Part shown: positions 11,689 to 48,069 of the stretch, in pieces
How the letters are laid out: each line of letters begins with the position of its first letter
How positions within the stretch are numbered: the stretch's first letter is position 1
Source of the DNA: Voacanga thouarsii
Lineage: Eukaryota > Streptophyta > Magnoliopsida > Gentianales > Apocynaceae
Direction: 5' to 3'
NCBI GenBank assembly: GCA_026120185.1
Contig: JANUWF010001614.1
Location: forward strand, 2,467,501 to 2,531,500
DNA: 64,000 nt
Program-made: the position numbers and the translations under genes
The notes under the pieces: generated by a model
Databases searched by the model: none
What the model was told of the DNA's origin: nothing
The model's input: the letters and a program-made list of their open reading frames with translations, nothing else

Positions 11689-13489
11689 TGTTGGGAAATA
11701 TGCCATCTTAGACTAGTTTTCTGATGTAAATATCGAATATTTTAATAAAAGAATTTATTTTCAAAAATCATTTGTGAATTTACATTTTATTTGTGCACAA
11801 TTACGTTTGGAAAAGACCTATTGTGTTTAAGTAAGTGGTCCATGTGAATGGAGGTCTTTCACAGTAAGGTATGGATCACGGGTTACTTAACACATAAACA
11901 TTTGTTCTTAACCGATTAATGAGAATGTAAATCTCGTTATGTTTAGGTTATTATGTTATGAATTTCAAATAGGGAATGTCTTACCTTTAGTCAGTGAGTA
12001 TTCCACTCACTTCATGACATAAGCGTATGTCGAATACGTAGAACAAGACCTGTAGTAGTGGTTTCTGAAAGTACTATATGGTAGAAACCTAGACAACTAC
12101 CACTACAGCGTGGACTAGTACTCTACGACTTGAGTATGAGTTGGTGGTCTGACAAAGTTAGAAGCATATACTTTGATGTGCTATAGTTGAGGTTCTATTG
12201 TAGGACCAATATACTTGCATGTTAGGTATTTGTGACTGGTTAGTTAAGACAGACTTGTAAAAGATAGTTTCTATACTATATCGCCCCTTGTGATTATCTG
12301 AATGATCTAAATATCTAGGGGCCTAGGAAACATGACTTGGATGTCTGCTTTAGGGTAGCTCCCTTAGAAAGCGGAAACAATCCAGGAAGTCGTGGATCAT
12401 TGGACTAGAAGCCTAAGGATGGTAGATGTCATTTAGAGAGGTGTTAGTACATTTCTTTTTCTCTAATGTACGGCGATATATAGAGGAGTATTTTAGTTAT
12501 TACACCTGTAGGTCGGAGACTTTGCTAACGTGGCATTGTCCTTGGGGTCAATATTTCCTTATGGTGATATTAGGAAATATTTAAAATGCAAAATACAGCT
12601 ATTTATATGGCAAGGGTATTTTGGTCATTTTAGTAGCCAAGGCAGTGTGTCTTTTGGTCTCCAGTATAGACCGAGAGTCTTAATTAAATACAGGATAAAG
12701 AATTGACCTTAAATTAAATGGAATTTATTTTTAAGTAGCCTGATTTAATTATTGGGTTAGACTAAAATAAAGGTCCATAGAGAGAACGAATTAATTAAAT
12801 TAGTTTGGTGGGTTAATTAATTATTCAGGATTTTGGCCCAGTTTGAATAATTAAAGATTAACCTGGGACTAAACTAATATAGGCTTATTTATTGGACTAG
12901 TTTATTTGGGTTGAAAAATTAATTATAAATTGGGCTAATTATTTGGTTCTAATTAGAATAATTAATTAAGTCCAAAAGGCTAAACTCAGAGTCGAATGGA
13001 CCAGTCCAGTTTAACCTAAGGTTTTATTTAGGTTAAACAGGAGGATTGGAAATAACGTTATTTTTTTGGCAGACTCTTCTCTGTGAAAAAAGAAGCACCC
13101 GTCTCTCTCTCATTCTTTCCAGAAAATATTCCTCAGTGCTGTTAGTTGTTCACCAAACGGAATTAGGCAGGCCATATACTGGAAGATCGAGAGTTTGGCG
13201 TTCACCTAAATGCAAAGATGGAGTAGGAGGCTTGCAGGAATCGCACCAGAGGTTTCCACCAGCACACCTACCTCGGTTCCACATATTCCGGTCCAGCCAA
13301 TTCTTAGAACGAGGAAAAGAGGTAAAAAATTTTAAACCTCAGAACCTGTACAGAGCGCAACCAGCACCGGATAGGGTTACCAGAGCTAGCGCTGGCTCTA
13401 TTTGGAGTTCCCCTGTTCTTCAGTTTTTTCAGTTTTTTTTGTTTTCGCTTCCGCTGCCTGCCTTGTGTTTTTCCCTTTCTATGCCTTCA
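11689..13489 (+). mobile_element. 5' LTR of copia element B
   Basis: The start TGTTGGGAAATATGCC resembles the starts of LTRs E and C. The right border is placed at CTTCA (13485-13489) because a primer-binding site begins three bases later. The result is about 1.8 kb. Only this 5' LTR is present; the rest of B is cut off at 16117, so no TSD can be checked. Near the end (about 13356-13406) is a GC-rich stretch, AACCAGCACCGG ... GCTAGCGCTGGCTC, which may be another decayed copy of the palindromic module described below. The open frame at 13046-13507 lies in the LTR and is probably not a gene. Confidence 0.75.
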
Positions 13490-13503: not shown

Positions 13504-13949
13504 TTGAAGGTTTTGTGAAAATATAGGGAGCATGCATCTAGTTGAATAAAATTGGACATATATGTGTGATTAAACTGTGATCCTTCACTGTTTTGATATG
13601 AATAGATTCTCTATTAAACCTCTCAGATTGAGGTATAGGAGATGTGTAATTTACTGTTTTTCTTAGCAAATCGTGTAAGCCCAATGTTAATGGGTATAGG
13701 CGATTATTGGTTTTGATTGATTTCATTGTATTGGGATTGAAATTGAAGAGCCAATGGCACCAGAAGTTTCATAGAAAAACAGAGAAAATTCGCAGAAAAA
13801 AAAAAACTGCAGAAGAATTCGTCTAGACTAGAACCGGCATTGGCTAGGCCACCCGAACCGGTGCCGGCTTAGGTCTGGACTCACGTCCGGATTTTAGGTC
13901 ACCCATGGGTCCTAGTTCTGTGCTGTGGGTGCAGTGGACCACAGTGTAG
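13504..13949 (+). other. Leader of element B with one GC-rich palindromic module
   Basis: This stretch has no coding match. At 13831-13870 are the paired cores ACCGGCATTGGC and AACCGGTGCCGGC, separated by TAGGCCACCCG; TTCTGTGCTGTG follows at about 13916. These match the module in C, F and M. A 15-bp direct repeat, GGGTGCAGTGGACCA, occurs at about 13927 and 13973. The N-terminal part of gag, expected in this interval, is absent. Confidence 0.6.
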
Positions 13950-18712: not shown

Positions 18713-20267
18713 TGTTAGTGTTGTGCCCTAGAGGCAATCGCTTGTACATTGTATATGACACATTTTATTTTAATAAAAGGCATTATTTATCTTACAGTTT
18801 CTTTTGTTTACTTTAAGTAATACAATTGTTTGATAAAGTCCATAGTACAACACTGTGTTAAGGTAATCATGATAGAGATCATGATATGAGATTCCTACTA
18901 CACTAGATGGTGTTAGTATTTAAATAATCCCTAGTCATAGTATTAATGAGACAGGACATCATTAATGCGTTAAGACTAGCATGTGTTAGACTTCTTGATT
19001 TGATCAGGCGGTAGTTCTCATAACCGTGAGTATTGAGATACTCAAAGTTAACACATGGATGCTTGTTAATGGAACAAGTAAATTGGATGACCTAGCTTTG
19101 AGATAATCATATGGATAACTATTTAGTGCCAGTGATATAATCTCAATATAGCAAATGTGAAAGTATCTTTAGACTTGAGATCTCCAAGGTACTTTGTTTG
19201 CTGAGCATTGTACTTTGATTACAATCTCCGGAGCTCGATCGAGGGCCGCCTATGGGATGGATACTGGGCACATTTTGAGGTAAACGAAGGTAGTTGAGAG
19301 GGTCAATAAAGGATTCACTATTCCTAATAGTAAGGGTGAATATCTCACGGCCACTTGTAGGAATTACTACTTGAAAGTCCTTAGCCAAGGCAATTGTGTA
19401 TTGAAAATAGTTCCAATTGATACATGTCTAGAATAGTAGGTTCCTGGTACAAGTACTATTGTATTCGGGCCAGAATTATTTCTGCAGGGAGTTGGCACTA
19501 ATTCCGTACTTGAAATCGAATGAGATATTCTATGGTGAAATGAGTTAATTGCACTGAAGTTTGTTATTGAAGGGTTCATGTCAAGCCACTTGACTTCGTA
19601 GACTCTTGGGTGGTCATGATGTGTTGCTAGATACCGCTCATGATATGGGAATATGGGTTTATTAATTGATGAATTAATAAACCAATCCTAATTAGAATTA
19701 ATAGGATTAATTCTAATTAATTATGGATTATTAATCTTAAAGATGTTTGGATTAATTCATGTTCGCTACCAATTGACTAGAAAACCTAATAGGTCACACA
19801 CAATAGAGGATTATATACTCAAGATGTTATTTGATAACATAATGGGGTTGATTGAAAGAAAGAGAAGTTGATGTGGACAATTTATAATTAGTTATAATTT
19901 GTGGTCCAAGTTATAATTGTGAGAACTTGATGTTTCCAATTACAATTAGGGAATTCTAATAGGATTAGAATTCTCAGTTTTAGGAGGGAAATTTCGTGTA
20001 ATATATAGTATATGTAACACACAAAAAACCCTAGCTGAAGAACACACAAAACAATAGCCACGAACATTCTCTCTTCTCTCTATCTCTCTCGAGTTGATCT
20101 TGATCAAAGAACCCTAGCCGCCATATTATTTCTGCTAGCACAAGAAAGTTTGGTGCTTGAGTATTTATCTGTGTGGATTACCTGTTAGAGATAATCACAC
20201 ATTGTGATTATAGTGGTTTAACTCTCGTGGAATTTGCACAAAAGGATTGCTGGATCGCGCCTCGACA
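18713..20267 (+). repeat. 5' LTR of element C (short U5)
   Basis: It starts TGTTAGTGTTGTGCCC and ends CCTCGACA, 1,555 bp. Compared with the 3' LTR it is collinear until GATCGYGCCTC and then jumps to ACA, missing about 160 bp. A TATATAGTATATG stretch near 20003 is a candidate TATA region. The polypyrimidine CTCTCTTCTCTC near 20070 and AAACCCTAGCC blocks are typical of plant transcript leaders. Confidence 0.9.
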
Positions 20268-20280: not shown

Positions 20281-20693
20281 CGTGCTATGTGTGGTTTACG
20301 GATATTGTTTTGGTATGAAAAACTGTTTTCGTGTTTGTCTTTTTTTACTGTGAAAATTGTTGTCACTCGAGCCGAACTCTTTTTGATCATTATGGATTAG
20401 GTCCGTAGCATAATATGATTGTGTAAAAGTTACAGCGTATTTCGAAAAGATGCTTTCTTTGGTGCTGAAAATTTCTGCAGGAAAAACATTTTCTTGCAAC
20501 ATGGATGTTGCCCTCCGTTTCATCTTAATTTTCTATTTTGATTTTTTTTAAACTAACAAATTGGTTGTTGTTTAGAGCTTCAAAATAGAAAATACTACTG
20601 AGAATTGTTCTCACTGAAAATTTGCAGAAGAAGAAAGCACGAGAAATTGTTTTTGAATTTTTTTGAAAAATCGCTGCCATTATTTCAGAACAC

Positions 20694-20847
20694 AGGCGGC
20701 GCCGGCTCTGGCCTCCAAGCTGGTGCCGGTTCCATTCTGTTCGCAATGTTCAGAAATCGATTTTGGAAAGGAAATTTTTATTTAAAACCAGAACAGAGCC
20801 GGTGCTAGCTTCGGCTTCCAAACCGGTGTCGGTTCTGCTCTGTTTGC
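20694..20847 (+). repeat. Two GC-rich palindromic modules, 101 bp apart
   Basis: Module 1 is GGCGGCGCCGGCTCTGGC followed by CTCCAA and GCTGGTGCCGGTTCC, then ATTCTGTTCGC. Module 2 (from 20795) is GAGCCGGTGCTAGCTTCGGC, TTCCAA, ACCGGTGTCGGTTC, then TGCTCTGTTTGCGAC. The shared core CCGGCGCCGG is self-complementary. The same module occurs in elements B, F and M. Confidence 0.8.
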
Positions 20848-21072: not shown

Positions 21073-22087
21073 TGATAAAAGTATATGTTTATTTTGTTTA
21101 AGTATAGTCAATGGCATGGTGGATGGTTATGGACTAAAACTAATTATATTTGTTCATGCATTTTACAGTTTTGATTTTTATGAAATAGGGCCGCGTGTCT
21201 TGCCTTCTCTAGAATTCTTGTGTAATTCTCTTCACATCTAACTCCCTTCGAATGTAACTCGAGGTTTTCTCTCTTTAGGAAATTATGTAATTAGTTTATA
21301 TAGGTTAGATAGAAGTAGAATTATTCTATTCTAGAGATGGCGACCAAAAAAATGCGAGAAGATAAGACCTTCTACTTAAATCAAGCATGAACACATAGGG
21401 TTATCTATGTTAATTTCTTTGATGCCTCAAAGAAATTAATTTAGGAAAAATCCATAACCATACCACGTAATCGCTTTATTACCATGATTATCAATTATAT
21501 GATTTATTGATTTTTATGCATATCATTCAACAAGATCACTAAAAGGAACAAATCCGTCAATTAATATTAAACCTAATTCCTTCCATTAATATAGTAAGAA
21601 CGAGAGTCCTTTTTCAAGACCAGGTTGTTGGGCAAACCTAAGCCTACTTGACATTGGGCATGTTTAAGCTATGGAATTAAATTCCTAATTAATGGGTTGG
21701 GTTTAACTAAATTCTTTATCTCGGTTGGGCAAACTCAAGCATAAAGAAATTTAGAGAAAAAGTTAGGGTAGCCCAAAAGGCTTTTAGATTAAAAGTTGTT
21801 AATCACCCAATGATCTAGTAGTTACATACGATGTAATTGGTATTGGATATCTACCAATGAACTCAAGGGTGGCTTATTGGGCAAACCCAAGGTTATTCTT
21901 GAGGAATTTGGATATCGGTCCACTAGAAAAGCTTCCAACGGGCTTTCTTGAATCAGTAGTAGGGGCTATTAGTTTGAGTAAAATAGTAGAGTAAAAATGC
22001 TCTTAATTAAAGTCCTAATTATTTGCATATCATGTACATATACAAGTAGCTAATGCTCTCTATCTTTCCATCTAGGTCACTTGCATC

Positions 22088-22930
22088 ATGTCAACAAACC
22101 TAAACTTACGTAGCATCTTGGAAACCAACAAGTTAACTGAATCAAACTATCTCGACTGGTATAGAAATTTGAGAATCGTTCTCAAATCGGAAAAGTTGCT
22201 TTACGTGCTAGATACTCCTATTCTACCACCACTAGCCCAAGATGCTCATGCTGATGAGCATGCTGTTCACAAGAGGCACAAGGAGGATAGTGATACAACA
22301 TCATGTATTATGTTGGTATCCATGACTCCTGAGTTGCAAAAACAACACGAGCATATGGATGTTCAATCGATCATTTTATATCTTCGAGAGCTGTTTGATG
22401 CCCAAGTCATAACTAAGAGATATGAGATCTCGAAGCAACTGTTTTATTGCAAAATGGCAGAGGGTTCTTTTGTGACTACTCATGGGTTGAAGATGCTGGG
22501 CTTAATAGAGAAGTTTGGATCTCTCGGGTTTGCAATGGATAATGACTTAAGTGTTTACTTAATTCTACAGTTTTTGCCTAATAGTTTCTCACAATTTGTG
22601 ATTAACTATTAGATGAACAAGATTGAGTCCACCATTTTTGAGTTGATCAATCTTCTCAAAACTGTGGAGTCCTCTATGAAGAAGGATTCCAATATAGTTT
22701 TAATGGTAGAATCTTCCTCTTCTAAGAAGAAAGTTCAAAAGAAGAAGAAGAAAGCTCCCATGAAGCCCAAAGGTGGTGTGAACAAGAAGGACGCAGCTAC
22801 CAAGGGCCTATGCCATCATTGTGGGAAGATGGACCACTAGAGACGCAACTGCAAAGCCTACTTGGAGACCATTAAGGATAAGAAGTAGAATGAGAAGCTT
22901 ACAAGGACTTCTTCTTCTTCTCCAGGCATG
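22088..22930 (+). pseudogene. Element C gag (two or more stops)
   Basis: The start MSTNLNLRSILETNKL and YLDWYRNLRIVL are the typical N-terminus of copia Gag (capsid, UBN2-type domain). The frame runs to a TAG at 22610-22612, continues as MNKIESTIFELINLLKTVE and a lysine-rich stretch, and reaches the zinc knuckle CHHCGKMDH. There a TAG (22838-22840) replaces the usual Trp codon before RRNC. Both TAGs also occur at the same places in the C' copy near 60 kb, so they predate the spread of these copies. Gag would package the RNA in cytoplasmic particles. Confidence 0.88.
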
Positions 22931-23592
22931 TTTATGATTGAGATAAATACTGCCTTTAGAAATGAGATATGGGTATTAGATACCGGATGTGGATCACATT
23001 TGTGCAATAACTTGTAGGGGCTAAAGAGTAGTAGAAGGCTAGAGAAAGGCGATGTGGACCTATGTACTGCAAATGGGGCAAAGGTTGCTGCACTTGCTGT
23101 GGGGACATACGAGCTGAACCTGCCTTCGGGATTAATTCTAGAACTGCAAAACTATTATTATGTACCAGTTTAATGAAAAACATTATCTCAGTTGCATGTT
23201 TAGACTTATGTGGATTTCATTTAATATTTAAGAATAAATGTTGTTCTTTTTATTTGAATGATATTCACTATGGTTCAACAATTTTGGTTAATGGTTTATA
23301 TGTTCTAGACTTGGATAATCTAGTTCTCAATATAAACAATAAGAAACCTAAATTGGATAACTCTAACACCTCTTACTTATGGTATTGTTGTTTGGGCCAT
23401 GTAAACGAAAATTGTGTTTCTAAGTTACACAAGCTTTATGACTTAGGGTCATTTGATTATGAATCATATGGCATATACGAATCTTGTTTACTAGGCAAAA
23501 TGACTAAAACTCCTTTTCCAGAAAAAGGAGAACGGGCCAAGGAGTTATTAGAACTCATACATTCTGATGTTTGTGGCCTAATGTCAATATAA
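22931..23592 (+). pseudogene. Element C protease and integrase zinc domain
   Basis: The protease active site reads WVLDTGCGSHLC (about 22972), with the D-T-G triad kept. A stop (TAG at about 23015) and frame changes follow. The GAG-pre-integrase part in 23062-23592 has LGHVNENCVSKLHKL and CLLGKMTKTPF, the HHCC zinc finger with its second cysteine pair spaced normally. It then has LIHSDVCG with the first catalytic Asp. A TAA at 23590 ends it just before VRGGY. Confidence 0.85.
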
Positions 23593-24297
23593 GTAAGAGG
23601 AGGTTACAATTATTTCATAACCTTTATTGATGACTTCTCACGATACGAGTATTTGTATTTAATGAAATACAAATATGAGGCCTTTGAAAGGTTCAAAGAC
23701 TTCAATAATGAAATAGAAAAACAACTTGGCAAAAGTATAAAGACTCTAAGATCTAATCGAGGAGGTGAATACTTGAGCCAAGAGTTTCTGAGTTATCTTA
23801 GAGATAATGGGATATTATCTCAATGGACTCCACCACATACACCTCAGTATAATGGTGTATCTGAGAAAAGGAATCGAACCCTTCCGGATATGGTACGGAC
23901 CATGATGGCTTCTGCAGACCTACCAAAATCGTTTTGGGGGTATGCACTAGAAACTTCTGTTTATATACTAAATAGAGTTCCGACAAAATCGATTGATATT
24001 ACCCCATTTGAGATGTTCTTTGGTAAGAGACCAAAGTTATCTCACTTGCGAGTATGGGGTTGTCCTACCTTTGTTAAAAGGCCACAGTCAGACAAACTTG
24101 ATAGTAAGTATGACAAGTGTTTGTTTGTAGGATCTCCGAAAGAATCTTTCGGATATTTCTTCTATTTACCCTCCAAAAACAAATTGTTTGTTTCGAAGCA
24201 TGCCGTCTTCTTAGAGAAGAAGCACATGCTCAAAGGGGACAGTGGGAGTAAGATTGAACTTAGTGAAGTTCATGAAGATCAAACAAACGAGGATTAA
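23593..24297 (+). pseudogene. Element C integrase core and C-terminus
   Basis: The sequence continues as YFITFIDDFSRY and IEKQLGKSIKTLRS. The second catalytic residue is changed: RSDRGGEY reads RSNRGGEY (Asn at 23755-23757). The Glu in NGVSEKRNRT is kept. The C-terminal part shows FWGYALETSVYILNRVP, PFEMFFGKRPKLSHLRVWGC and CLFVGSPKESFGYFFY, as expected for Ty1/copia integrases. A TAA at 24295 closes the frame. With the D to N change the enzyme is expected to be inactive. Confidence 0.9.
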
Positions 24298-25824
24298 CCG
24301 TCTAACCCCACATCTATTGAGAGAATAGATGAACCTTCTAATACACAAGAACCTCGTAGATCTAGTAGGATACGTATGGCACCTGAGAGATATGGATTTC
24401 TCATCAGTGACCACAATGACATATTGCTCATAGATAAAGATGAGCCTACTACCTACAAGGATTTTTTGAATAGTTCAGAATCTGACAAATGGTTTGAGGC
24501 TATGAAGTCAAAGATGGATTCCATGTACGACAACCAAGTATGGACTTTGGTTGATCCATCCAAAGGAATTAAACCTATTGGGTGCAAATGGGTTTTCAAG
24601 AAGAAAATAGACATAGATGGTAACTTAGTTACTTATAAAGAACGACTAGTGGTGAAGGGTTATCGTCAACAACATGGTATTGACTATAATGAAACATTCT
24701 TACCAGTAGCCATGTTAAAATCCATCAGGATACTCTTAGCCATTATTGCTCATTATGATTATGAGATTTGGCAAATGGATGTGAAAATAGCTTTCCTAAA
24801 TGGAAATCTGACTGAGGAAGTGTATATGACACAACCCGAGGGTTTCACATCTAGTGATGGCACAAAGGTGTATAAGTTGCAAAGGTCTATTTATGGACTT
24901 AAGCAGGCTTCTAGGAGTTGGAACCTCTGTTTTGATGAAACAATCAAAGAGTTTGGTTTCATTCAAAATATGGATGAGCTTTGTGTATACAAGAAGGTTA
25001 GTGGGAGTGCAATTGTTTTCTTACTGCTTTATGTAAATGACATAATGCTAATAGGAAACGATATACCTGTCTTGCAAACGGTTAAAATTTGATTGTCCAA
25101 ACAATTCTCCATGAAAGACCTTAGAGAAGCAACCTATATTCTTGGAATAAGAATCTATAGAGATAGATCCAAAATGTTGCTTGGTCTTTCACAGTCTATA
25201 TATATCGATAAAGTACTAAAGTGGCTTAGCATAGATTAATCCAAAAAGGGATTCTTACACATGTCACATAATGTAAGCCTTTCAAAGTCGATGTCTCCCA
25301 AGACATAAGTTGAAAGGGATCACATGAGTAATATTCCATATGCCTCGACAGTTGGATCTATCATGTATGCTATGATATGTACTAGGCCTGATGTATCTTG
25401 TGTACTTAGTTTGACGAGTAGATACCAATCTAACCCTAGTGAAGGTCATTGGGCAGTTGTAAAAAGTATTCTTAAGTACTTACAAAGGACTAAAGATATG
25501 TTCTTAGTATATGGAGAAGGTGATTTGAAAATAAACGGGTGTACTGATGCCAGTTTTCAATCTAACAAAGATGATTTCAAATCACAATCCGGCTTCGTGT
25601 TAACGTTGTGTGAAGGGGCAATAAGTTGGAAAAGTTCCAAACAAGAAACTATTGCCATCTCTACGACAGAAGCTGAGTATGCCGCTTCTGAAGCAGCAAA
25701 GGAAATAAAGATAGAGAGAGTTCCCACGGATGAGAACATAGCTGACCCGCTGACCCGTTTACGAAAGCACTATCCCAAAAGAAACATAATTGTCATGTTC
25801 AGTCATTCGATATTAGATACATGA
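24298..25824 (+). pseudogene. Element C reverse transcriptase and RNase H (broken)
   Basis: RT motifs are in order in 24376-25092: PIGCKWVFKKK, ERLVVKGYRQ, QMDVKIAFLNGNL, SIYGLKQASRSW. The catalytic YVDD reads YVND (Asn at 25036-25038), so polymerisation should be lost. After a TGA at 25090 the thumb and RNase H regions continue in 25324-25824 (TVGSIMYAMICTRPDVS, WKSSKQETIAISTTEAEY). About 190 bp of RNase H is missing: EAAKE at about 25697 joins directly to IERVPTDENIADPL. The homologous copy at 52246-53223 keeps this piece. Stops also occur at about 25239 and 25306. Confidence 0.9.
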
Positions 25825-33132: not shown

Positions 33133-33735
33133 TATTAGGTATCTCATGCATATCATATATGGCACAGCGAAAAAAATAAGAACAAGATACCATCCCAGGA
33201 TTCACATACGTGTGGAAAACAAGATATAAAGAGAACAAAGGCAATGGTTTTACCTTTCTTTAAGTGCCTGAAAAACAAAAATTTCCTTCTTTTTTCTGAC
33301 GATTGTGGTGCGATCTAGCAATCCCCTTGATCAAACACCACGAGAGTTGAATGTCCAACTACTACAATCACAGTATGTGATTATCTCTAACAGAAATTCA
33401 CACAGAGGATCACACTCAAGCACCAAAATTTTTTGTGCTAGCAGAAAACAAAGTGGCGGCTAGGGTTTCCAAAGAACAACGAGAGAAAGAAAGAAGAGAA
33501 GGGTTTTAGAAGATGTTGTTTTCTGTGAATGGCCTAATCAAATTAGGTTTCGTGCATATCCCCATATATGTCATGAAAATTCATTGAAAAATTGAAAATT
33601 CTAAAACAATTAGAATTCCTTAATTGTAATTGGAAATATCAAGTTCTCACAATTATAATTTGGCCAATAAATTATAACTAATTATAATTTGGCCACAACT
33701 TATTCTCTTTCTCGCAATTCACCACACTATGTTAT
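33133..33735 (-). mobile_element. 3' LTR of C-family element C', U5 part
   Basis: The reverse complement matches 26960-27573 of element C, including the U5 tail (TATCTTGTTTTCCACAC, ATATGATATGYRTGAGATACC) absent from the C 5' LTR. The outer edge reads TATTAGG where TGTTGGG is expected. Element F interrupts it at GTTAT (33731-33735). The rest of this LTR resumes at 51115. Confidence 0.88.
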
Positions 33736-34682
33736 TGATGTGTCCGGACTTGGGTATAAAAATCATACAATAACTAAGCACATTTCCAATCAAGTTTAAA
33801 TTAAAATGTTCAACCCAAATCACACATATGAGTAAGCGTACTCATCATTAACCGAGCATAGGGTTCAAATGAGTGTCGATCCTCAAGAAACAAGTAGACA
33901 TTACATAACTTTCTTTCATTGTTTAAACGACTCGATAAAGTAAAAAAGAAACAAAATAAAACAAAGGAAAATAAAAATAAAAATATATACATGTCAAAGA
34001 TGGAGAAGTATGTAACACAAACCATTGTTTAGACAAACATGATCTCAAAGGACCTAACCATTATCATAACTAATTCTTCTCTTGGCACCATGAAGGATAA
34101 AGGTAAATTAGCATCACTTCGTCTATCTCAACTATTTACTATCTTCTAGATAAATTAGCATCACTTGGTCTGTCTCAACTAATTCATCCAAAAGATGCAT
34201 TAAAAACAATTCTTGATTAAATTTCCTTGGTCTGGCAAATTTAAAGCATGAAATTAATCAATGAATCATTGTCTGGCAAACATCAATTAACCTTTAATTA
34301 CTTAATCCTCAGCAATTAACTTCTTTGGTCTAGCAAGTTAACAACCAATAATTATGAAATCAATCAATTGCAACTACTATCAACCTCTTTGGTCTAGCAA
34401 GTTAATGAAAAGAAACAACTAATTAATCTCGTAATACGCCTAAGTAATTAAATACCAAGAAGAACAATCAATTAATTAAAAGATCAAACTACTCTGAGAA
34501 TCATGATTATCTAAAACAATGTCAAATTACTATGAAACAATTAACATATCATTGTTCAAGAAAAAGAAAACAAAGTAAAAGAATGCATTCATAGACAAGC
34601 TTCCTTCTTTTTCCTTTGAAGACCATCTTGTACAATCCTTCTTGAATCAATGAATTCCCCCTTTTCCCCTTATGTTTTTCAT

Positions 34683-34691
34683 CTATTTATA
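34683..34691 (-). promoter_or_regulatory. TATA box of F LTR
   Basis: CTATTTATA on the plus strand is TATAAATAG on the coding strand. It is conserved in the other LTR at 50559-50567. Confidence 0.6.
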
Positions 34692-34815
34692 GGCTTAGGA
34701 AGTGCCTAAACTGGTAGGTACAGTGTTCTTAGCCGAGTAGAAGTTGGAAGATACTAAAACTCTGTAGATTACCAAAAACCACATAGAAAATCAAAGCACC
34801 GCCTTAACTTCAGGG

Positions 34816-35085
34816 CATAGCCGGCACCGCTTTGGCTCTTGGAGCCGGTGTCGCCTTGGCTCTCGGAGTCGGTTGTGTTCTACTTCTCTCATTGTTTGCT
34901 GATTTTCTCTAAATTTCACATAATGAAGACCAAAATGCAGCCGGCGCCGCTTTGACTCTTGGAGCTGGCGCCGGTTCCACTATGTTTCTTTCTGTTTTGC
35001 TAATTTTTCCATCGTTTCAAAGTTCGTGTAAATAGTACATGGCTGGCGCTGGTTCTAAGGCCCTAGTCGGCGCTGCCTCTCCTCT
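34816..35085. repeat. Three GC-rich palindromic modules in F 3' LTR
   Basis: The modules start near 34816, 34938 and 35041. Example: CAGCCGGCGCCGC, TTTGACTCTTGGA, GCTGGCGCCGGTTCC, then ACTATGTTTC. The third is followed by CTCTGTTTTGTGACG, close to CTCTGTTTGCGAC of element C. They lie in U3, about 125 bp upstream of the TATA box. Confidence 0.8.
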
Positions 35086-35256
35086 GTTTTGTGACGTTTT
35101 TGTTTCATTTTACCCTAAAAATCTGAAATAATGAACAAAATACCTTTCCAAGGGTAAAATCTCAAATATGAAGGAATATAACTAGTTATTGAACCAAATG
35201 TATCACAAAAGAACCTCAAATAACTAGGAAAAATATAACTAATTTAGCCCCTATCA

Positions 35257-35275
35257 TATTTCCCCACACTTAGCT
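35257..35275 (-). promoter_or_regulatory. Polypurine tract of element F
   Basis: On the reverse strand AAGTGTGGGGAAATA runs directly into the LTR start TGATAGGGG. Upstream is TGAGGACAAGCAAAGAGC, a sequence known next to polypurine tracts of Tat/Athila-type elements. Confidence 0.8.
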
Positions 35276-37597
35276 CTTTGCTTGTCCTCAAGCAAAGTAT
35301 CAAGAACAAGTAGGAAAAGACAAGGTTTCTTTAATCACTTAATCAATTTCAAAATAATATCTTCAACGCTTTCTTCATTCAAGAACATAGAACACATGCT
35401 ACTATATTTTTCACAACCAATGCAAGACTTATGTTAGTGATAAATGACTTAGTAGAACCATCTCAATACTTCATAATATCCTCAAACCATTGGAAAGAAT
35501 TTAGTTCAAAAAAAGAATATGCATTCCATAGGCTTACTTTTCTTACACTCTCTCCACTAATTCGAAGCATATCATGATTCTACAAAGATCAAGTAGGACT
35601 TTTAAGCATGTAATGTAAGGGTAAAGGCTTGTAATGTAGCTTATCAAACCAAGGATATAGGAGATTCAAAAATCAAAGAAAAACTGAGAGTTAGCAAGAA
35701 AAGGATAAACAAAATGAATCAATAATTTCCAACTCTTCTTGCTCTCCTATTCCAAAAATCAATCAAACTATAATCTTATTTAGCAATTCTTATGCACTTC
35801 AAGTAAATCCTGCACTTTTTTCTCTTTTTTCTCAACTCTTCTTTATTTCTTTCACAAGATCACTCGAATTTTCCAGCAATGGTGTCAAGTATTTTAATAT
35901 GAACTTAACTTTTACAACTCAATCACCATTCTTTTTGTGATCTTTTCTTTCTTCTTCTTTCTTTTAATAAAATTTTTTTCTCTTTTTTTTTCAACAAAAA
36001 TTATTTTTCTTCTTCTTGCATTGTTGCTATTTTTTTCACAGTTTCTTTCTTTCAATTTGTCTTTTCTTTCTAGCAGCTTTTTGTTTTCTTCTTCTTTTTC
36101 TCCTCTCCTTTTCTATTCTCTTTCTTCTCTCTCTTTTTCGACTTTTTTCTTTCATTCTTACTACTACTTTTCTTGTCCCAACTCAGCTCATTATTGATTC
36201 ATGACTGAAAGTAACAAGTCATGATCTTTATCCCAACATTTTTTCTCAACATTCTCATACATATACTTTCACCCATCAAGAGCATAAAGATTTGGAAAAT
36301 TATTCAAACTCTCAGCACAAGCAATGGACAAACTATTGTGACGGGTTTTAATGAAAGAAATTAACAATTTAGGCTCAAATCGGCACTAAGAACGTTATGA
36401 AAATAGGTAGGCTTGAAAAGCTCAAACTATCCAAAAAAGGCCTATTACCGTCATCCCTAAGTTAAATCATGATTGTCTTTCTTATTTCGCCTCGAGAGTC
36501 AAGTAAGTTCTAGAATGCTCCATGAATTTTAGTAGAAAAACAGGTTTAAGAATAATGCAAAGCATTAGATCAAGAACTACTTCGTCCAAGTGCGTGCAAA
36601 AAGTCATGCATAAGCCATAAATGATCTAGAACATATGCTCTATAATCTATCATAAAGACATGCATTAAAAATATATATTGAAAGCTCAATGAAAATAAAT
36701 TTTTTTTTTGAAAAATCTGCTCAAAAGGTTCATATAAGAATGTCAAGATAAATAAAGCATAGAAGAATTCCCATTCTAACCACTCTCCCACACTTAAACT
36801 GGACATTGTCCTCAATGGCCAAACAAATAGAGCAAGGAGCTATTGCCAAGGGACCAAAAATAAAAGGGGAAAAGAGAAGAAAGAAAATACTCCCATACTT
36901 GGTGCTCAAAATAGAATTATTTCTCAATTTCAAAATATTTCAAAGTAGCTCAATGCTAAGAAAACACCAAGATAATTGATAAAAACTTAGACAAAGTATA
37001 TCACCTAACCACTCCCCCACACTTAAATTGGACCATGTCCTCATTCGCAAAAAGTAAACACAAGAAAGAATCTCCAAAGGGACTAAAAATAATAAGGGGT
37101 TAGAAAGTTTAAGTAATACTTTCCAAGTGCAAAAATGCTCCAATAGATATCCAAACTTGAGGTAAAGAGAATGGCTTGTCCAAGAGGACTTTATGCCTAT
37201 AAAACAAAACACAAATAAAAGCACAAGGAAAATAATAATACAATAAAAATAGACCTAAATAAAAGAAAACAGGCTAAAGAAAAAGACTAAAATTTAAAAA
37301 ATTAAAACTAAAACAAAAACTCTCTACACCCATCATGCTTCCTCATCAAACATTTTGAAAAGAAATTAAAGCTCAAAGTAGAAGAGAGGCATAATGCATG
37401 TAGAATGAAGAATGGAGGATTTTGAAAAATGGAAGGTTCATGAAAATAATTTTGTTTTTTCAATAAAGCAAAACACATAAACCTCTTTCTCTAACATTTC
37501 TTTAGATATACAAATATTGTTGTCAACATATAAGTGCACCTGGTTTCTAAAGAATGCATTAAGCTTGAAATCACCGATTGACCCTTCAAAAGAATTT
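35276..37597 (-). other. 3' non-coding region of element F, with pyrimidine tract and duplicated tract motifs
   Basis: There is no coding domain. The plus strand is strongly pyrimidine-rich at 35937-36170; the long hydrophobic frames there are composition artefacts. Two further copies of the polypurine-adjacent motif (plus strand CTCYCCCACACTTAAAYTGG + ACATTGTCCTCA) occur at 36779-36815 and 37009-37045, 230 bp apart, in a partly duplicated segment. Confidence 0.6.
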
Positions 37598-37983
37598 TTA
37601 CAATTTAAAATATCCCTTTAAACTTAGTGTTTGAATTCTTAAAGATGGGATTGGGAAATCCTTACTTTTCAACGCTTCTACAAATACAAAGTTATCTCCC
37701 TGAGATTGGGGAGAAGGGTAGAATTTGTCAACATCCTCAAAAGGTTTCTTAGAATAAATGATAAATCCAACTTCTTGAGGTATGTTGAACTCCATACATC
37801 ATCATTAGGACCATTGTTCTCCAAGAAGTGCGAAGAGCCTAAGAAATCATGTGACAAAGAAATATTAGAATTATGAGCACATAGAGTAGAATAGAATACC
37901 TCTCTTGTCACATCATGCAATTGTTCCTCATAGCCGCTCTTTTTGTTCCATGGTCGATTGTACGGGCTAGCATGGACTTATGA
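37598..37983 (-). pseudogene. Element F, unrecognised coding remnant
   Basis: Two overlapping reverse frames (37598-37795 and 37678-37920) together cover about 320 bp. Motifs include SLSHDFLGSSHFLENNG and YPSPQSQGDNFVFVE. I do not recognise the protein. It lies upstream of the non-coding 3' region, where Athila-type elements carry the end of pol or an extra ORF, so a frameshifted remnant is plausible. Confidence 0.35.
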
Positions 37984-40900
37984 TGTAATACCCCACCCAA
38001 AACCACCTTTAACCTACGGGGAAAAAGTCATGCATTGCATAGCATCTCGCATTTCATGTGATATCTTCAAATTATTTTTGCATGGGTGCATATGACTTTC
38101 AAGGTGGGGCTTGCATAAAATTATTTAAAAGTGTTGTTGCATTATTTGAGAGTTGCTTTAAGTGAAGTTTAGTAGAGGAGATGGATGGATGAGAATTAGG
38201 GTGGAAAGAATTTCCTAGAGAAATATTATCATCGGAGTTGATTTGGAATAGCGGTTAGATTTGGTGATTTTCCTTGGTGACCCAAGTTCGAATCTTACCT
38301 CTTGCGAATCTTAGTTTTCCTTTTTAATTCTTTTCTCTAGATTTCTTCATGCTTTGGCCGAAAAGCCCTAGCCATCCTAGTGAATTTCAGCGCCATCATC
38401 TAAGAAGATAAGTCTCCATATTTATCTCCTAAATTCAAGGATTTTTTATGAGGATAAAGTTTAATTTTATTTCCAGCTTTTATTCTTTGATTTTCGAAAA
38501 TCCTAGCTAGAATAATTAGATTCCAGCTTGGTTTTAATGTATCAGTTTTTGTAATTGATAGTTGGAACTAAAGTGCTATTTTTTTTTAGTTAGATACCTT
38601 GTTGATTGTGAACATAGAACCCTAGCTAAAAATCTGGAAAATTTTCCAGCTTAGTGCTGCCACTTTGAAGGTGTTTTAGCTCAAAACAAACTCTTCCAAT
38701 ACTAGGAAAATCTTATCCTAAATCCTTTAGCAAATCAGATTTTATTTCAATCCTAAATCAACTAGGTTTTACTCTCTCTTCTTCCTGTAGAATTTTGGCA
38801 GCCTTGTGCATGCACAAGCTGCACGAAATTCTTGCACTCCTAAGTGCAATCAAACTCTTCAAACCCTAGCTCAAATCACGTAGAATATCCCTCACCAAAT
38901 CAGATTATTGTAGCGACACAAAATTAGATTTTATCCACAAAAAATTCCAGAATTTCAGCCAGCTTTGTACAAGAATTTCGGCCAGCTTTGCTTAATGCAA
39001 TGCACGAAAATTCTGCACTCCAAAATATACCAAAACTCCTTATTGATTAAGCCAAACCACAACACCTGAAACTCTTATTTTTCCCTCTGATTTGTGGGCA
39101 GAATAGAAGCCGAAAAAAGTCTAGAAATTATGCCTTTTGCTCACAGATTTCGTGCAGAATTTCTAGTTACCAAAGCTGTGCAAACTCTCCCTTGATTAGC
39201 CAAAAAGACTTGAACACACACAGCCCTTTTCTTGAGCAATATTTCGGCCAGCATAGGAGAACAATTCTAGATTATTTTCCCCTCCTAAACCTTCCCAATT
39301 TCAGCAGCAAAAAGGGGTACAACAAGCTGCAATTCTCGCCCTTGCTGTCCAAGAAACCTAAAGCCATTAGGAGTCCTTCTTATCACCACCATCTAATCCT
39401 AAATCAAACTTCTCTAACCCTAAATCACAGTAGCCGACCACTCCCTCCTACCTACACAAAAATTCCAGCATGAACTCTTCCACAATTTTCAAAAATCCCA
39501 AGAACAATTCCTAGCAAAAAAAACCAATCACACCCTAAGGTAAGCAAAAATCATCTCAACCTCTTGAATCATTTCTTTCGTCAATTCTTCTTTTTTCCTT
39601 CCCTTGAATCACGCCACCTAAAGGTTGATTTCATCCTCTTTAGCTACCTTCGGATAAAAGGAAGAAAAGAAGGTAGCTTTTCTCTTCTTCTCAAACGAAG
39701 TCAGGACGATTACCATAGGAGTATCAAGATCTTGATAACCCGGTTGTTTCAAGGCAAGGGAATTCTTACCCTTGATGTCGAAGTTAAGGTCTAATAAGAT
39801 TGATGAGGTCTATGGAAGTAGGATAGCATGATATATGTGCTTAGTGGGGATAGATGAATATTTTGAGTCGAGTACTTAATTAAGCATATTCGATGGATAG
39901 TAATGCCATGTTTTATTGTGATAATGACGGATGTGATTTGTGATGGTCAAATCAAGACCTTTTTGATATATTAATCATGTCTTTAATGGATGTAGGGTCA
40001 TAGTGCATGAACTTTGAGAAGTAGATAATTTATTTGGAGGTAGATAATGCATTGTGAATTGTTATGGGAATAAATCAGTTTAATGCATGTTTGAATCGAT
40101 TGAGGCCCTGATCATGATAATATGTGATTCTAGATCAGGAGGGTATTTGAAGGAAGTAAGCTGTGATTTTATCTTGTTTATCTGAGGCATATCAAGTAAG
40201 TCCATGCATAAACTCTTTTGTTAAATGTTGTGATGGCACAAGTCTATGTAGTAAAGCTTTGTGAAGCTATTGTTAAATTATGTTTGCTTGGGTTGTAAAC
40301 ATGGATATTTACTCTTTTACCGGTTTTGTCAAACTAACGATTTTATCAAGAACACTATTCTTTCTACTAAATTTTTAGAAAACTCTTCTAAAGAAAACCA
40401 CATTTTACAAAGCCATGATATATAAATATTTTGAATCAAGAATTGACGGATATGTTCGTTGAGTACTTAATAAGGGTAGGCTAACAATACTAATCTTGGA
40501 GGGCTTGAGTAAGTCTTCTGGCAGGAGGCCACCTCCAGAAGATAAGCTCGGCTTGAAAAGGCGACAGTGTTGGTTAGTCAGCCGGTCCGAGCTAGAATTT
40601 GTACCTAGTAAGGTATTATTTATTTTCTTGGCATAGACACTCAGATGGTTTTGTTGGGTGTAGAGAAGGAGGAGTATCTCACCCGGTGGGCCGTACACTC
40701 ACCTTGATCAGAACGCCCAACGTGTGGTAATCTAGTCTAGGCAAGGTGCACAAAGTGTGGTGCCTTGTCCTTATAGAGCCCAACTTGTGGTGACATGACT
40801 ATTTATTCGAGTGGATGATTTATTTTGTATAAAGTGTGATAATGAGAAAAACCCACTCATTGCAAAGAGAAAATTATTTATGACTTGCTGAATATTTCTG

Positions 40901-41281
40901 CAAATATTTTTTACTATGCATACACAAACTGTTCAAAGTACCATGTGCACACATAGGACTTACTGAGATTTAATCTCATGCTGTAATATATCATGTTTTC
41001 AGGAGATAGATTATGCTGAGTGAGTGGGGCATGTGATAGTTGAAGCTTTTGTTATTTCTTTCCATTGTGTTCTAGGAGACAATTGTTGGTTTAAGTCAGA
41101 AATTTGTTTTGTTTAGTTTTGCTCGTGTTTGAGCCGATGTAATAGGAATTTTTCGTTATTTATCTAAGTTTGATTTCTTTGGTTGTCTTTACATTTTTAT
41201 ACCCCGTTTTAAAGACCTCTTGTCCTTCGGGATAGGGCGACATCCCCGCCCTTCTTGGGAACGTAGTAGTGGGGTGTTACA
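37984..41281 (+). mobile_element. Solo LTR G2 (Tekay/Del-like), nested in F
   Basis: It starts TGTAATACCCCACCC and ends GTGGGGTGTTACA, 3,298 bp. The flanks are TATGA (37979-37983) and CATGA (41282-41286), a TSD with one mismatch. It has no primer-binding site or coding sequence. The right third shares with other family members the GAGTACTTAATAAGGGTAGG / GGAGGCCACCTCC block (40455-40560), the GGACTTACTGAGATTTAATC block (40955) and the CTTGTCCTTCGGGA block (41219). The frames inside it (39192-39473, 39564-39794, 40405-40698) are not genes. Confidence 0.87.
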
Positions 41282-41525
41282 CATGAGTCTTGATAAGACT
41301 CCACTTCATCATAGAGGACAAGGACCGATGACTAGAGCGAGGACCAAGAAGCTTCAAGATGATTTTCAATTGATCATCAAACAATGCTTGAGGATGAAGG
41401 AGGATTGGAGGGTTGAGGAAGCAAGCCAAGAGTTCGTGTTGATGGCCATCCGTGAAGTACCCCAACAAGAACTTAAGCCATCAGCAAAAGGGGATGGAAT
41501 TTAACAAGGGAGGCTTCCAAAGAAA

Positions 41526-41640
41526 AACCGACGCTGGCTCCATGCAGCCAAACCGGCACTGGCTCCATTCTGTCCAAAACCAACACTCAAGCAAATGAGA
41601 ACCGACCGAAGACAGAACTAAACCAGCGTCGACTTTCCCT
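41526..41640 (+). repeat. GC-rich palindromic modules in M 5' LTR
   Basis: CCGACGCTGGCTCC, ATGCAGCCAA, ACCGGCACTGGCTCC, ATTCTGTCC; then about 92 bp on, AACCAGCGTCGAC. These are decayed relatives (C to T and G to A changes) of the better copies in the 3' LTR. They lie about 134 bp upstream of the TATA box. Confidence 0.75.
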
Positions 41641-41773
41641 TGGGTTATCGCCGATTGCTCCGCGTTTTATTGCTGTTCTTCGCCTTTCTTCACCTTTAAG
41701 TGTTTGTAAAGACTTATTTTGACCCTAAAACTGTAATTAAACCTCAGGGATTACTTAGTTAGGGTTAGGATAG

Positions 41774-41782
41774 TATAAATAG
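41774..41782 (+). promoter_or_regulatory. TATA box of M 5' LTR
   Basis: TATAAATAG, a consensus plant TATA box, is conserved in the 3' LTR at 48552-48560. Transcription would start about 30 bp downstream and define R. Confidence 0.65.
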
Positions 41783-42275
41783 CACATTTATTGGTTTGAC
41801 AAGACAAGACATTTCATTTTATTTCAAATTGAGAGAGAATCTTGAGAGGCCCTAGCCTCCTTGTTCATCTTGTTCAAGACCAAGCTTAAGGGTTAGTCCT
41901 CCTTTTGTAAGAGTCTCTAAATCTTTTGGATAATCCAATGTTGTTTTCTTTGAATAGGTCTTAGTTGCTTTGTTCTTCTAGGGTTCGTTTGAAATTCAAT
42001 ATTTGGTTGCCTATTTTCTCTATTCTATTTGTTCTTGCTTGCCTTTGTTGCTTCAAGGATATTAGGGTGAGAATATAATAGAACTTTCTACTCATCTTGA
42101 GGGTCTTTGGGGCTTTATTCTTCAAGGGTTTGAAAGAGTGTAGTTAGTTAGGTGACTTTCTCCTTTGTCACAAGAAGAAATCTTTATTTTGGGTTCCACT
42201 TACTTGACTGAACACACAGCCACCAAAAAACCCACAACACCAAGAAAAGCCACACAAGAGTCGTATCAAAGAGTT

Positions 42276-42287
42276 TGGTATCAGAAC
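42276..42287 (+). promoter_or_regulatory. Primer-binding site of element M
   Basis: TGGTATCAGAAC lies seven bases after the LTR end, with one mismatch to the initiator-methionine tRNA complement. Confidence 0.82.
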
Positions 42288-43181
42288 ATGGAAAAGCTTG
42301 ATTCCTATCAAAGCTTGAAAATAGGAAAAAGGAGCCCTACAAAGTGAAGAAAAGAGAAAAACAGAAAATCCCGTAACTCAGAAAATTGATCCAAAAAGGT
42401 CTTGAAGTTTTTGTTGTATCTTGATTTTTTGTTGGAAAATTGCTCATTGATGTTATTATAATCCTTGGGAACAAATTTGTCTTGTGATTGTGTTGAGATT
42501 TGGCTTGAATATGGGTGAAAATTCTGGTTGCTCTTGAGTGATGAGGTTACAGCCAAGGTGTTTGATAAATGTTCCATGAGAGTGTTTTTGGCTATAGTTG
42601 GGAACTTTGACTCTTGATTTTTATTCCTTGGGATTTTGTGGCTTAGTATATCATTAAATTATTGAATTCCATGTCCATTGAACTCAAATTTTCTATTGCA
42701 CCTTTGTAATCATCTTGTTCTTCATCATCCTAGTTCTAGTTGTTCTTGTTTTCTTTGTTCTTCATAATTCTTGTTTATTTCTTGATTAGAAGTGTTCTTT
42801 TGCATCTAGTTCTTGCTCTTGGGTTGATTGAGTCCATTTTTCTTGAAATTCTTGGTTTAAAACTTGATTGCTTGGAGGTGCCCAACAAGTGTTTGTTGAA
42901 ATTTCCCTAAGACCCATTATTTGGAAATTCCTTTTGATTTGTGTGATTCACTTAGCTGGATTAAATCTTCAGCTATTGGAGAGAATTAGGATTGAACAAG
43001 AAGGCTTAAGTGTTAAGAAAAAGGCAAAAGGGAGAGCCTATTATCAAAAGAGCCTAAGAGAGTAAACACGAGGGTAGAGTGATCAACCTTGAGAGCCAAC
43101 ATGCAAGGAAGTGCAGTGAGGATCAATTTTTCTTTTTAATCTCTTGTTTTGAAGGTATAGACAAGTAAATACTCTACTACC
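42288..43181 (+). other. Leader of element M
   Basis: This is 0.9 kb without coding similarity between the primer-binding site and the gag ATG. It is rich in TTCTTGTT-type pyrimidine segments. Confidence 0.6.
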
Positions 43182-44487
43182 ATGGCCCATGAACAAGAGA
43201 TCTCTAGGCCTAATGCAAGTGGACCTAGTAGACCGCAAGAAGAACCCATTGATGCTAGGGGATTGCGTGAGGACTTGTAAGCCATGATGAGGACTATGCA
43301 AAGCGAATTTCAAAATCTGACAAGGGAGTTGATAAACCATCTTGGCTAATCTTCTACCGTTGCACAAAAGAGGGGCCAAGAATGATTTGAAGCACCTAGC
43401 CCTAGAATGAGGGATGGTGATGCCCACACTCCTCCCTTACATGCCTAACAAGGGGAAGAATAGGACGAACATTCAATTGGGGGATTCCAACAAGCTTCTA
43501 TAAGAGGGAGAGTTCATGGAATGAGAGGAGGATGAGGTAGAGGACAAAGAAGGAATGGGGGGAATAATCTAAGGGGGCTAGAAAGAAAATTTGAAGGAGT
43601 CGATGAGTGGTATGAAGGAGAACATGTTGAGGCCTTTGGGGAACAACCTAGAGGATGGGGTAATAGAGGAGGAAGGAGAGAACGAAATGATGTGGAAAGG
43701 GAGTTGAGCCATATTAAATTGAAAGTGCCCATATTCTATGGCAAGAGTGACCCCGAAGCGTACATTTAGTGGGAAAGCAAGATGGGGATATTCCTAGAAA
43801 GCCATACTTATAGTGAGAGGTCAAAAGTAAGGTTGGCTATTTTGGGTTTCTCGGAGTATGCTTTGATATGGTAGGAGCAAGTTAGTGCTCAAGAGGCAAA
43901 TGGGAGTGGAAACCGTGGTGAGTTGGAATTTATTGAAAGATATGATGAGAGCAAGGTTTATACCCCACCATTACTATAATGATCTCTACCAAAGGCTCCA
44001 ATCACTCAAGCAAGGGAACAAAAGTGTGGAAGATTATCATAAGGAGATGGAAGTCATGTTGATGAGAGCTCAAATCCATGAAGATCCTAGAGTAACAAGA
44101 GCAAGGTTTTTGGAAGGATTAAATAGAGAGATTGCCAATTTAGTGGAGTTGCACCCCTATGATCGATTGGAGGATATGGTACATGCCGCCATAAAGATTG
44201 AAAGGAAAATAAAGAGAATGGCATTTACTAGATCAACACTTCCAAACCCCAACACAACTAGCAAGGTGCCAACTAAGAAGGATGAAGCCCCCGAGCCATT
44301 TCAAAGGGATTTCAACAAACCTAGGGAAGCTTGGAAACCTAGGGAAGAATAGAAGCTTAGGGAGGATTGGAAACCTAGGGAATGATAGAACAAGGATAAG
44401 GGGAAAGCCATGGAGAGGCCACAAAGGAATAGAGATATCAAATACTTTAAGTGCCTTGGATATGGACACACTTCCTATAAGTGTCCA
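43182..44487 (+). pseudogene. Element M gag (stops and one frameshift)
   Basis: The start is taken at MAHEQEISRPNASGPSRP (43182). The first part is Arg/Gly-rich and broken by several stops (for example at about 43278 and 43347). It runs to KLKVPIFYGKSDPEAYI, the standard start of the gypsy Gag capsid fold. A frameshift near 43880 moves it into 43885-44352 (YYNDLYQRLQSLKQGNKSVEDYHKEMEVMLMRA and RFLEGLNREIANLVEL, the retrotrans_gag domain). The zinc knuckle (about 44428-44487) reads YFKCLGYGHTSYKC, with its first Cys replaced by Tyr. Confidence 0.88.
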
Positions 44488-45495: not shown

Positions 45496-46015
45496 GTGCC
45501 CGGAGCCGTCATCCCCAACCAACCGGCATATAGAAGCAATCTGGAGGAATCCAAGGAATTGCAAAAGCAAGTGGAGGCATTGCCTGAGAAGGGACATGTG
45601 AGAGATAGCCTAAGCCCCTGTGCGGTTCCGATTCTCTTGGTGCCCAAAAAGGATGGGACATGGCGTATGTGTGTGAATTGTCGTGCTATCAACATCATAA
45701 TGGTAAAATACCACTATCCCATTCCTAGGCTAGATGACTTGCTTGATAAGCTATTTGGTGCATGCATTTCTCAAAAATTGATTTGAAATCCAGTTACCAC
45801 CAAATTAGAATAAAGGAAGGGGATGAATGGAAAACAGCTATTTAAACTAAGGGGGCTAGAATGAATGGCTTGTCATGCCCTTTGGGTTGTCCAATGCTCC
45901 AAGTAATTTTATGCAATTAATGCACCATGTTTTGAGGGAATTCATTGGGAAATTTGTTGTTGTGTATTTTGATGATATATTAATTTACAGCAAATCATAG
46001 TGGACCATTTAAATC
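45496..46015 (+). pseudogene. Element M reverse transcriptase
   Basis: The frame 45496-45786 has CAVPILLVPKKDGTWRMCVNCRAIN and [15 protein letters not shown], the fingers and palm of gypsy RT. A frameshift near 45780 separates the middle palm. The catalytic box is present in another frame as [12 protein letters not shown], with YFDD at 45965-45976. The active site is intact but the reading frame is not. Confidence 0.87.
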
Positions 46016-47679: not shown

Positions 47680-47755
47680 GAAGGTAGAAATGGTGAAGGC
47701 ACTCCATGGAGTTAAGAAGGTAGAAATAGCGAAGGCACTCCATGAGAAGGTGAAG
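47680..47755 (+). repeat. Short tandem duplication in M integrase C-terminus
   Basis: A block of about 36 bp, GTTAAGAAGGTAGAAATAGC + GAAGGCACTCCATG, follows a near-identical copy with GAGCTAAGAAGGTAGAAATG. It adds 12 codons in frame (KKVEMVKALHG / KKVEIAKALHE). Confidence 0.7.
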
Positions 47756-48054: not shown

Positions 48055-48069
48055 TCAAGGAGAGGGAGA
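48055..48069 (+). promoter_or_regulatory. Polypurine tract of element M
   Basis: CAAGGAGAGGGAGA lies directly before the 3' LTR start TGATGAGACTCC. It is translated in the integrase frame, as expected if the ORF overlaps the LTR. Confidence 0.8.

What the first reader, a model, noticed from the sequence alone, without database searches (positions are those of the whole stretch)
20694..20847. A GC-rich palindromic module shared by four unrelated retrotransposon families (C copy)
Seen: two units 101 bp apart in the leader of copia element C, each with two CCGGCGCCGG-like cores about 12 bp apart, followed by YTCTGTTYGCGAC. The same architecture and flanking words appear in the U3 of gypsy elements F and M and in the leader of copia B. 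These elements differ in all other non-coding sequence, so common descent of the whole elements is not the explanation. CCGGCGCCGG is its own reverse complement. Inference: a mobile or recurrently captured cis module, such as an enhancer, an RNA dimerisation or packaging signal, or a methylation or replication signal. I know of no described module of this kind, but could not search.
Basis: partly seen in the sequence, partly recalled or inferred. Interest (0 to 1): 0.8.

Follow-up and report, generated by a model that had tools for sequence, protein, structure and literature searches.

The report
Shared palindromic module across plant retrotransposons
In an unnamed dogbane-family plant, four retrotransposon families that are otherwise unalike in their non-coding DNA carry the same short GC-rich palindromic DNA unit, which recurs across the genome and looks like a control element passed between families or favoured in all of them.

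Summary
The unit is about 58 bp: two near-palindromic CCGGCGCCGG cores starting 24-25 bp apart, a partly conserved spacer, and CAGAAC/CATTCTG-type flanks. Fourteen copies lie in four elements: copia B and C, gypsy M, and gypsy-like F (minus strand). Profiles trained without a family recover its units (14 of 14 beat 400 shuffles); spacer and flanks are shared as well as cores. Cross-family identity is 0.59 inside and 0.29 outside the unit. In the 1.35-Gb host genome a core pattern has 2588 matches against 14 for its reversed control; 67 of 82 listed core pairs have spacers of 14-15. Of 64 sampled loci, 62 fall in recurrent families. Positions differ: U3 upstream of TATA in M and F, leader in C and B. 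Units are mostly inherited within a family. I favour a DNA-level cis-regulatory array acquired by several families, working like the palindromic boxes of Sirevirus LTRs but shared between copia and gypsy. A sense-RNA hairpin is disfavoured: no compensatory change, and the sense strand folds less stably. Function is untested; exchange and convergence are not separated.

The parts
20684..20741 (+). unit C1 in the leader of copia element C (cores 20696-20705 and 20720-20729)
20787..20844 (+). unit C2 in the leader of copia element C (cores 20799-20808 and 20823-20832)
18713..20266 (+). 5' LTR of C (3' LTR 25853-27412, 91.7% identical); TATA-like at 20002; PBS-like TGGTATTAGAGC at 20269
22076..25092 (+). 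gag/pol ORF pieces of C (Retrotran_gag_2, gag_pre-integrs, SH3_retrovirus, rve, RVT_2): Ty1/copia
13349..13407 (-). unit B1, just upstream of the PBS of copia element B; matches the profile in inverse orientation
13822..13879 (+). unit B2 in the leader of copia element B (PBS-like at 13492)
41516..41574 (+). unit M5a in U3 of the 5' LTR of gypsy element M, start 246 bp upstream of TATA (41774)
41587..41644 (+). unit M5b, more decayed, U3 of the 5' LTR of M, start 175 bp upstream of TATA
48294..48352 (+). unit M3a, same place in the 3' LTR of M
48365..48422 (+). unit M3b, more decayed, same place in the 3' LTR of M
41291..49047 (+). element M (LTRs 41291-42268 and 48070-49047, 92.9%), gag, protease, RNase H and integrase pieces (Retrotrans_gag, RVP_2, RT_RNaseH, rve, SH3_Tf2-1): gypsy; lies inside F
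50686..50947 (-). three units (50698, 50800, 50902; period 102) in U3 of the right-hand (5', minus strand) LTR of F, 160-417 bp from the LTR start; TATA-like at LTR position 548
34809..35088 (-). three units (34821, 34941, 35043) at the matching place in the left-hand (3') LTR of F
33735..51114 (-). element F (LTRs 33735-35256 and 49616-51114, 85%), PBS-like GTTTTTGGCACCGTTGCC and PPT-like AAGTGTGGGG on the minus strand; no retrotransposon domain in the four interior minus-strand ORFs searched and no tblastn match to M or C protein pieces

Best explanation
The unit is a DNA-level cis-regulatory module: a dyad-symmetric, CpG-rich composite site present in two or three tandem copies, probably bound by host DNA-binding protein(s) and raising or shaping transcription of the element. 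It entered several LTR-retrotransposon lineages of this plant separately, most likely by recombination or template switching between elements, and was then inherited within each lineage and multiplied in tandem. Shown: one composite sequence in copia and gypsy elements, sharp borders, nearly fixed core spacing, genome-wide abundance in recurrent families, presence in both LTRs of M and of F. Inferred: protein binding, transcriptional effect, and exchange rather than convergence.
For: Held-out family scores beat shuffles, 14 of 14 units; non-core columns shared (12 units); identity 0.59 inside, 0.29 outside the unit. Of 59 alignments under 150 bp joining different clusters of 49 anchored loci, 39 were 40-59 bp long. 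Core-plus pattern 1314+1274 matches against 8+6 reversed; core pairs at gap 31-61, 237+248 against 1+0; spacer 14-15 in 67 of 82 distinct listed intervals of the gap 0-30 search. 64 sampled loci plus 5 window anchors make 8 clusters at 200 or 300 bp and 10 at 400 bp. Both LTRs of M and of F carry the units at matching places, so the units predate those insertions. Of 15 M-family genome loci 11 have a TATA within reach, and in 10 of these the nearest scanned unit starts 163-176 bp upstream of it; in window F it is 164. CpG observed/expected is 0.94-1.13 in C, F, M and B2 modules against 0.42 in the window. Tandem unit distances of 72-75 and 93-102 bp make up all 25 distances under 200 bp.
Against: No binding, expression or methylation data. 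In C no TATA was found downstream of the unit, and in B only one, 1142 bp away, so the position is not uniformly promoter-proximal. In one search four M loci (L031, L037, L050, L064) and F rows L016, L031 and L053 gave no downstream TATA, M L068 gave 246, F L048 194 and L067 247; in window M the nearest unit that the scan kept is at 246. F-related loci (X) also carry units in the leader. The nearest relative of a unit is usually in its own family (87 of 94 units), so recent exchange between families is not shown. Convergence on a composite site is not excluded. Module C/G sites are not protected after insertion: transition rate 0.167 in, 0.154 out in F; 0.250 in, 0.115 out in M. The reversed-pattern control was itself high (349+352 against 855+854) and is unexplained.
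Confidence: 0.45

Rival explanations
1. Convergence: each family evolved the composite site on its own under selection for the same host DNA-binding protein(s), without exchange of sequence.
For: Heat-response sites arose repeatedly in Brassicaceae COPIA families (PMC5059998, passages). Units cluster by family, and linkers between units are near chance for most pairs.
Against: Flanks and spacer are shared as well as cores, the 24-25 bp spacing recurs across families, and the unit stops sharply at both ends: a lot to converge on at once.
Confidence: 0.25
2. RNA hairpin: the unit folds in the genomic RNA and serves dimerisation, packaging or translation control.
For: Some units fold very stably: F3a -39.0 kcal/mol, z -6.1, equal to the lowest of 1599 68-nt windows; B2 z -5.4 (window + strand, so F3a there is the antisense of F). 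C units and B2 lie between PBS and gag. A copia element, BARE2, is said to keep dimerisation and packaging signals (PMC3735527, passages).
Against: Compensated core pairs are 3 of 96 deviating pairs in 35 units not chosen by the search pattern, below the permutation mean of 6.3 (the scan kept only doublets with at most 4 core mismatches, 7 of the 14 window units). The sense strand folds less stably than the antisense, -26.9 against -30.5 kcal/mol over 75 units, p 3e-6. M's units fold no better than shuffles in sense. Flank complementarity within a unit is no better than across families, 8.43 against 8.38. U3 position in M and F.
Confidence: 0.12
3. The units are a by-product of or target for silencing: palindromic, cytosine-dense DNA that attracts small RNAs and methylation, with no benefit to the element.
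For: Palindrome clusters in maize Sirevirus LTRs draw small RNAs (PMC10760457, passages, citing Bousios 2016, which was not seen). Core substitutions in units outside the search anchor are mostly C>T and G>A.
Against: A mere liability should be lost, yet it is kept in at least four families with CpG observed/expected near 1. No small-RNA or methylation data here.
Confidence: 0.12
4. The unit is itself a miniature mobile element that inserts into retrotransposons.
For: Its dyad symmetry resembles a small foldback element.
Against: 62 of 64 sampled loci cluster in recurrent families, and where alignments had to cover the unit 23 of 24 did, so units moved with their elements; only L056 and L066 stand alone at 200 bp, and the doublet scan kept no unit in L066. 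Target-site duplications around units were not looked for.
Confidence: 0.04

Closest known systems
Sirevirus repeated motifs (RM boxes) of plant Ty1/copia LTRs (PMC2829016)
   Same: Palindromic GC-rich boxes with a CGG-CCG core, in repeats, CpG-rich, in the upper LTR upstream of TATA (as in M and F here).
   Different: There one short box per element, 8-32 copies, described as a Sirevirus-specific feature; here a two-core composite with 24-25 bp spacing and conserved flanks, 2-3 copies, shared by copia and gypsy, and in the leader of copia elements.
Maize palindrome CACCGGACNNNGTCCGGTG in Copia and Helitron sequences (PMC10760457, passages)
   Same: The same palindrome found in different transposon superfamilies and linked to small RNAs.
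   Different: Different sequence and a single palindrome; the passages seen do not describe a fixed two-core unit.
Heat-response elements of Brassicaceae COPIA LTRs such as ONSEN (PMC5059998, passages)
   Same: Cis sites in LTRs that recur in several element families.
   Different: Described as mostly species-specific and independently evolved; no shared flanks or spacer described in the passages seen.
Shared non-coding regulatory sequences of grass pararetroviruses (PMC5491270, abstract)
   Same: Different elements of one host share non-coding control sequence, homogenised by recombination.
   Different: Partner pararetrovirus species sharing intergenic sequence, not a 58-bp unit across copia and gypsy.

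Membership tests
Sirevirus RM boxes | palindromic with a CGG-CCG core | tested here: met
   core CCGGCGCCGG
Sirevirus RM boxes | cluster in the upper half of the LTR, upstream of TATA | tested here: inconclusive
   met in F (160-417 of 1499, TATA 548) and M (238-343 of 978, TATA 484); not met in C, whose units lie outside the LTR
Sirevirus RM boxes | at least eight copies per element, mostly over 85% identical | tested here: not met
   2 units in C, 2 per LTR in M, 3 per LTR in F, 2 in B; C1 against C2 74.6%
Sirevirus RM boxes | element is a Ty1/copia Sirevirus | tested here: not met
   M is gypsy by Pfam; lineage of B and C within copia not tested
Sirevirus RM boxes | boxes lie in CpG islands | tested here: inconclusive
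   CpG observed/expected 0.94-1.13 in C, F, M and B2 modules (B1 0.63) against 0.42 in the window; no island caller was run
Retroviral-type dimerisation/packaging signal | lies in the transcribed leader before gag | tested here: inconclusive
   met in C and B2, not in the U3 units of F and M
Retroviral-type dimerisation/packaging signal | RNA pairing kept by compensatory change | tested here: not met
Miniature transposable element | inserted copies with target-site duplications | not tested
   no empty sites or duplications were sought around units

The most novel reading that the evidence does not exclude
LTR retrotransposons of the two great plant superfamilies, copia and gypsy, in one host genome have passed a single non-coding control cassette among themselves, so that unrelated elements answer to the same host signal: horizontal sharing of a regulatory cassette between otherwise unrelated elements.
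Probability: 0.35. Interest if true: 0.82.

Novelty: new variant of a known kind. Interest (0 to 1): 0.62.

Why it matters
Retrotransposon control regions are usually treated as family-specific and fast-changing. A sharply bounded composite unit common to copia and gypsy elements would let one ask whether such elements trade regulatory parts or converge on one host factor, and would give a handle on which host signal wakes several families at once. The many copies also offer a data set for dating the event in Apocynaceae.

Tried and rejected
RNA families: no Rfam match in the window at gathering score; one sub-threshold match at E 0.68 near C, taken as chance. Viral contigs: two unit patterns and two single-protein searches gave no relatives, nor did the reverse-transcriptase alignment. 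Eight copia relatives in prokaryote assemblies, probably plant contamination for several, carry no unit at E up to 1. Outer-flank complementarity as evidence for hairpin conservation was rejected because pairing across families is just as good, although both exceed shuffled flanks. The first compensation test was set aside as biased by the search pattern and redone on the 35 units outside the search anchor. Linkers between C and F: 4 pairs, 21, 23, 80 and 209 of 1000 shuffles as good, with the matches at the unit edges; F against M downstream 0 of 1000, the strongest of 19 pairs and not explained. Pfam on F's interior: four ORFs, no retrotransposon domain. Literature: in ten searches no listed title or abstract start described a module shared by copia and gypsy; the listings are capped (20 of the 38 papers holding the core string were listed), and one further paper on plant LTRs held none of five terms sought in its text (PMC11656987).

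Full report
What is there. The window is plant DNA. The named plant proteins among the 120 best hits of the C reverse-transcriptase search are Ty1/copia-type or hypothetical proteins from several dicots. The host genome is 1,345,666,469 bases in 1848 contigs, and a plastid-type matK piece found in it is 97% identical to Tabernaemontana divaricata, so the host is an Apocynaceae plant near Tabernaemontana; I do not name the species. The window holds copia B and C, gypsy M, and F, called gypsy-like from its PBS- and PPT-like sequences (what these imply is recalled) and because an F-related locus, L080, has an aspartic-protease ORF next to its leader units, which by itself does not prove gypsy. 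F itself gave no retrotransposon domain in four ORFs.

The unit. Two cores resembling CCGGCGCCGG start 24 bp apart (25 in B1 and in M's first unit of each LTR). One search scored all 14 window units with profiles trained on the other three families, B1 turned round: bits 5.7 to 37.8, and none of 400 shuffles of any unit did as well. One search repeated this on 12 units with the cores removed: left 12, spacer 14 and right 12 were each shared in the family-weighted sum (0 of 2000 shuffles), though single pieces of single units were weaker. One search gave identity of 0.59 within the unit and 0.29 beyond, over 38 cross-family pairs of 11 units. No other place in the 64 kb reached E below 1 with the seven profiles; M5b and M3b are the weakest units.

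Genome-wide. Core plus NNNNGG: 1314 forward and 1274 reverse, reversed-pattern control 8 and 6. Core pairs at gap 0-30: 855 and 854, control 349 and 352; the high control is unexplained. At gap 31-61: 237 and 248, control 1 and 0. Cores are palindromic, so one place can count on both strands. Among 82 distinct intervals in the listing (three of them overlap), spacer lengths were 14 (29) and 15 (38); the other 15 were scattered. The listing is the first part of the genome only.

Inheritance. Of 94 units, 87 had their nearest neighbour in the same family, with cross-family mean score 17.5 against 25.5 within. Among the exceptions is the window F unit at 34941, nearest to an M-family unit (L065). 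Another, L031 of the M cluster nearest to F-family L067, may simply lie in an F-like piece, since L031 also carries F-like sequence. Both LTRs of M and of F carry their units at the same places, so the units were there before insertion.

Position. In M and F the units lie in U3 upstream of TATA. In one search, 11 of 15 M-family genome loci have a TATA within reach; the nearest unit is 163-176 bp upstream in 10 and 246 in L068, and a second unit is usually 237-272 bp upstream. In window M the scan kept only the unit at 246; the weaker M5b is at 175. F in the window gives 164, 283 and 368, and L052 164 and 367; L048 gives 194 and L067 247 and 348; L016, L031 and L053 gave none. In C and B2 the units are downstream of the PBS; B1 is just upstream of it.

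DNA or RNA. Some units fold strongly, but the palindromic cores make that likely anyway. Compensatory change is absent in 35 units outside the search anchor (3 of 96 deviating pairs; 1976 of 2000 permutations did at least as well). The sense strand is less stable than the antisense in 75 oriented units, significantly in C and M, not in B and F. These results argue against selection on a sense RNA hairpin. Orientation relative to the element is mostly one way in C (21 of 22), M (22 of 27, 2 reversed, 3 unclear) and F (9 of 11, 2 unclear) but mixed in B (5 sense, 8 antisense, 2 unclear); the profile was trained on window units, so this is partly inherited.

Composition and decay. CpG observed/expected is 0.94-1.13 in C, F, M and B2 modules, 0.63 in B1, 0.42 in the window. 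Between the two LTRs, module sites differ more often than the rest (F 29 of 188 against 92 of 1268; M 22 of 135 against 46 of 842), but per C/G site the F excess vanishes and M's remains. So units are not protected after insertion; their high CpG content suggests either recent arrival or upkeep in the copies that transpose. That is inference.

Judgement. The kind of thing is known from Sirevirus LTRs (PMC2829016, sections 9 and 19 read), but one composite unit in both superfamilies did not appear in the listings of the ten searches made. Mechanism is inferred: a DNA-bound cis module, captured by several lineages. Convergence remains a real rival.

Noticed in passing
window 33135-33735 and 51115-52245: F appears inserted in a C-like LTR, whose two parts flank it (matches meet near C position 19834-19838), with GTTAT-like flanks; M lies in turn inside F.
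   Followed up: partly
window 8840-9243: A tandem array with a 25-bp period.
   Followed up: no
The genome search: The reversed-pattern control for core pairs at gap 0-30 had 349+352 matches, far above the control at gap 31-61; source unknown.
   Followed up: no
units oriented: Sense strands of C and M units fold less stably than antisense; a strand-biased decay might explain it.
   Followed up: no
L001-L005: Plant-like copia sequence in assemblies labelled as bacteria, probably contamination.
   Followed up: no
L083: A plastid-type matK stretch in the assembly, followed by a run of N.
   Followed up: partly
L065 and window F unit 34941: An M-family unit and an F unit share much of their spacer, a possible exchange between gypsy lineages.
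   Followed up: partly
window 48414-48476 and 50630-50692: The stretches downstream of the last unit in M and in F aligned better than 1000 of 1000 shuffles, so the shared part of these two U3 regions may be longer than the unit.
   Followed up: no
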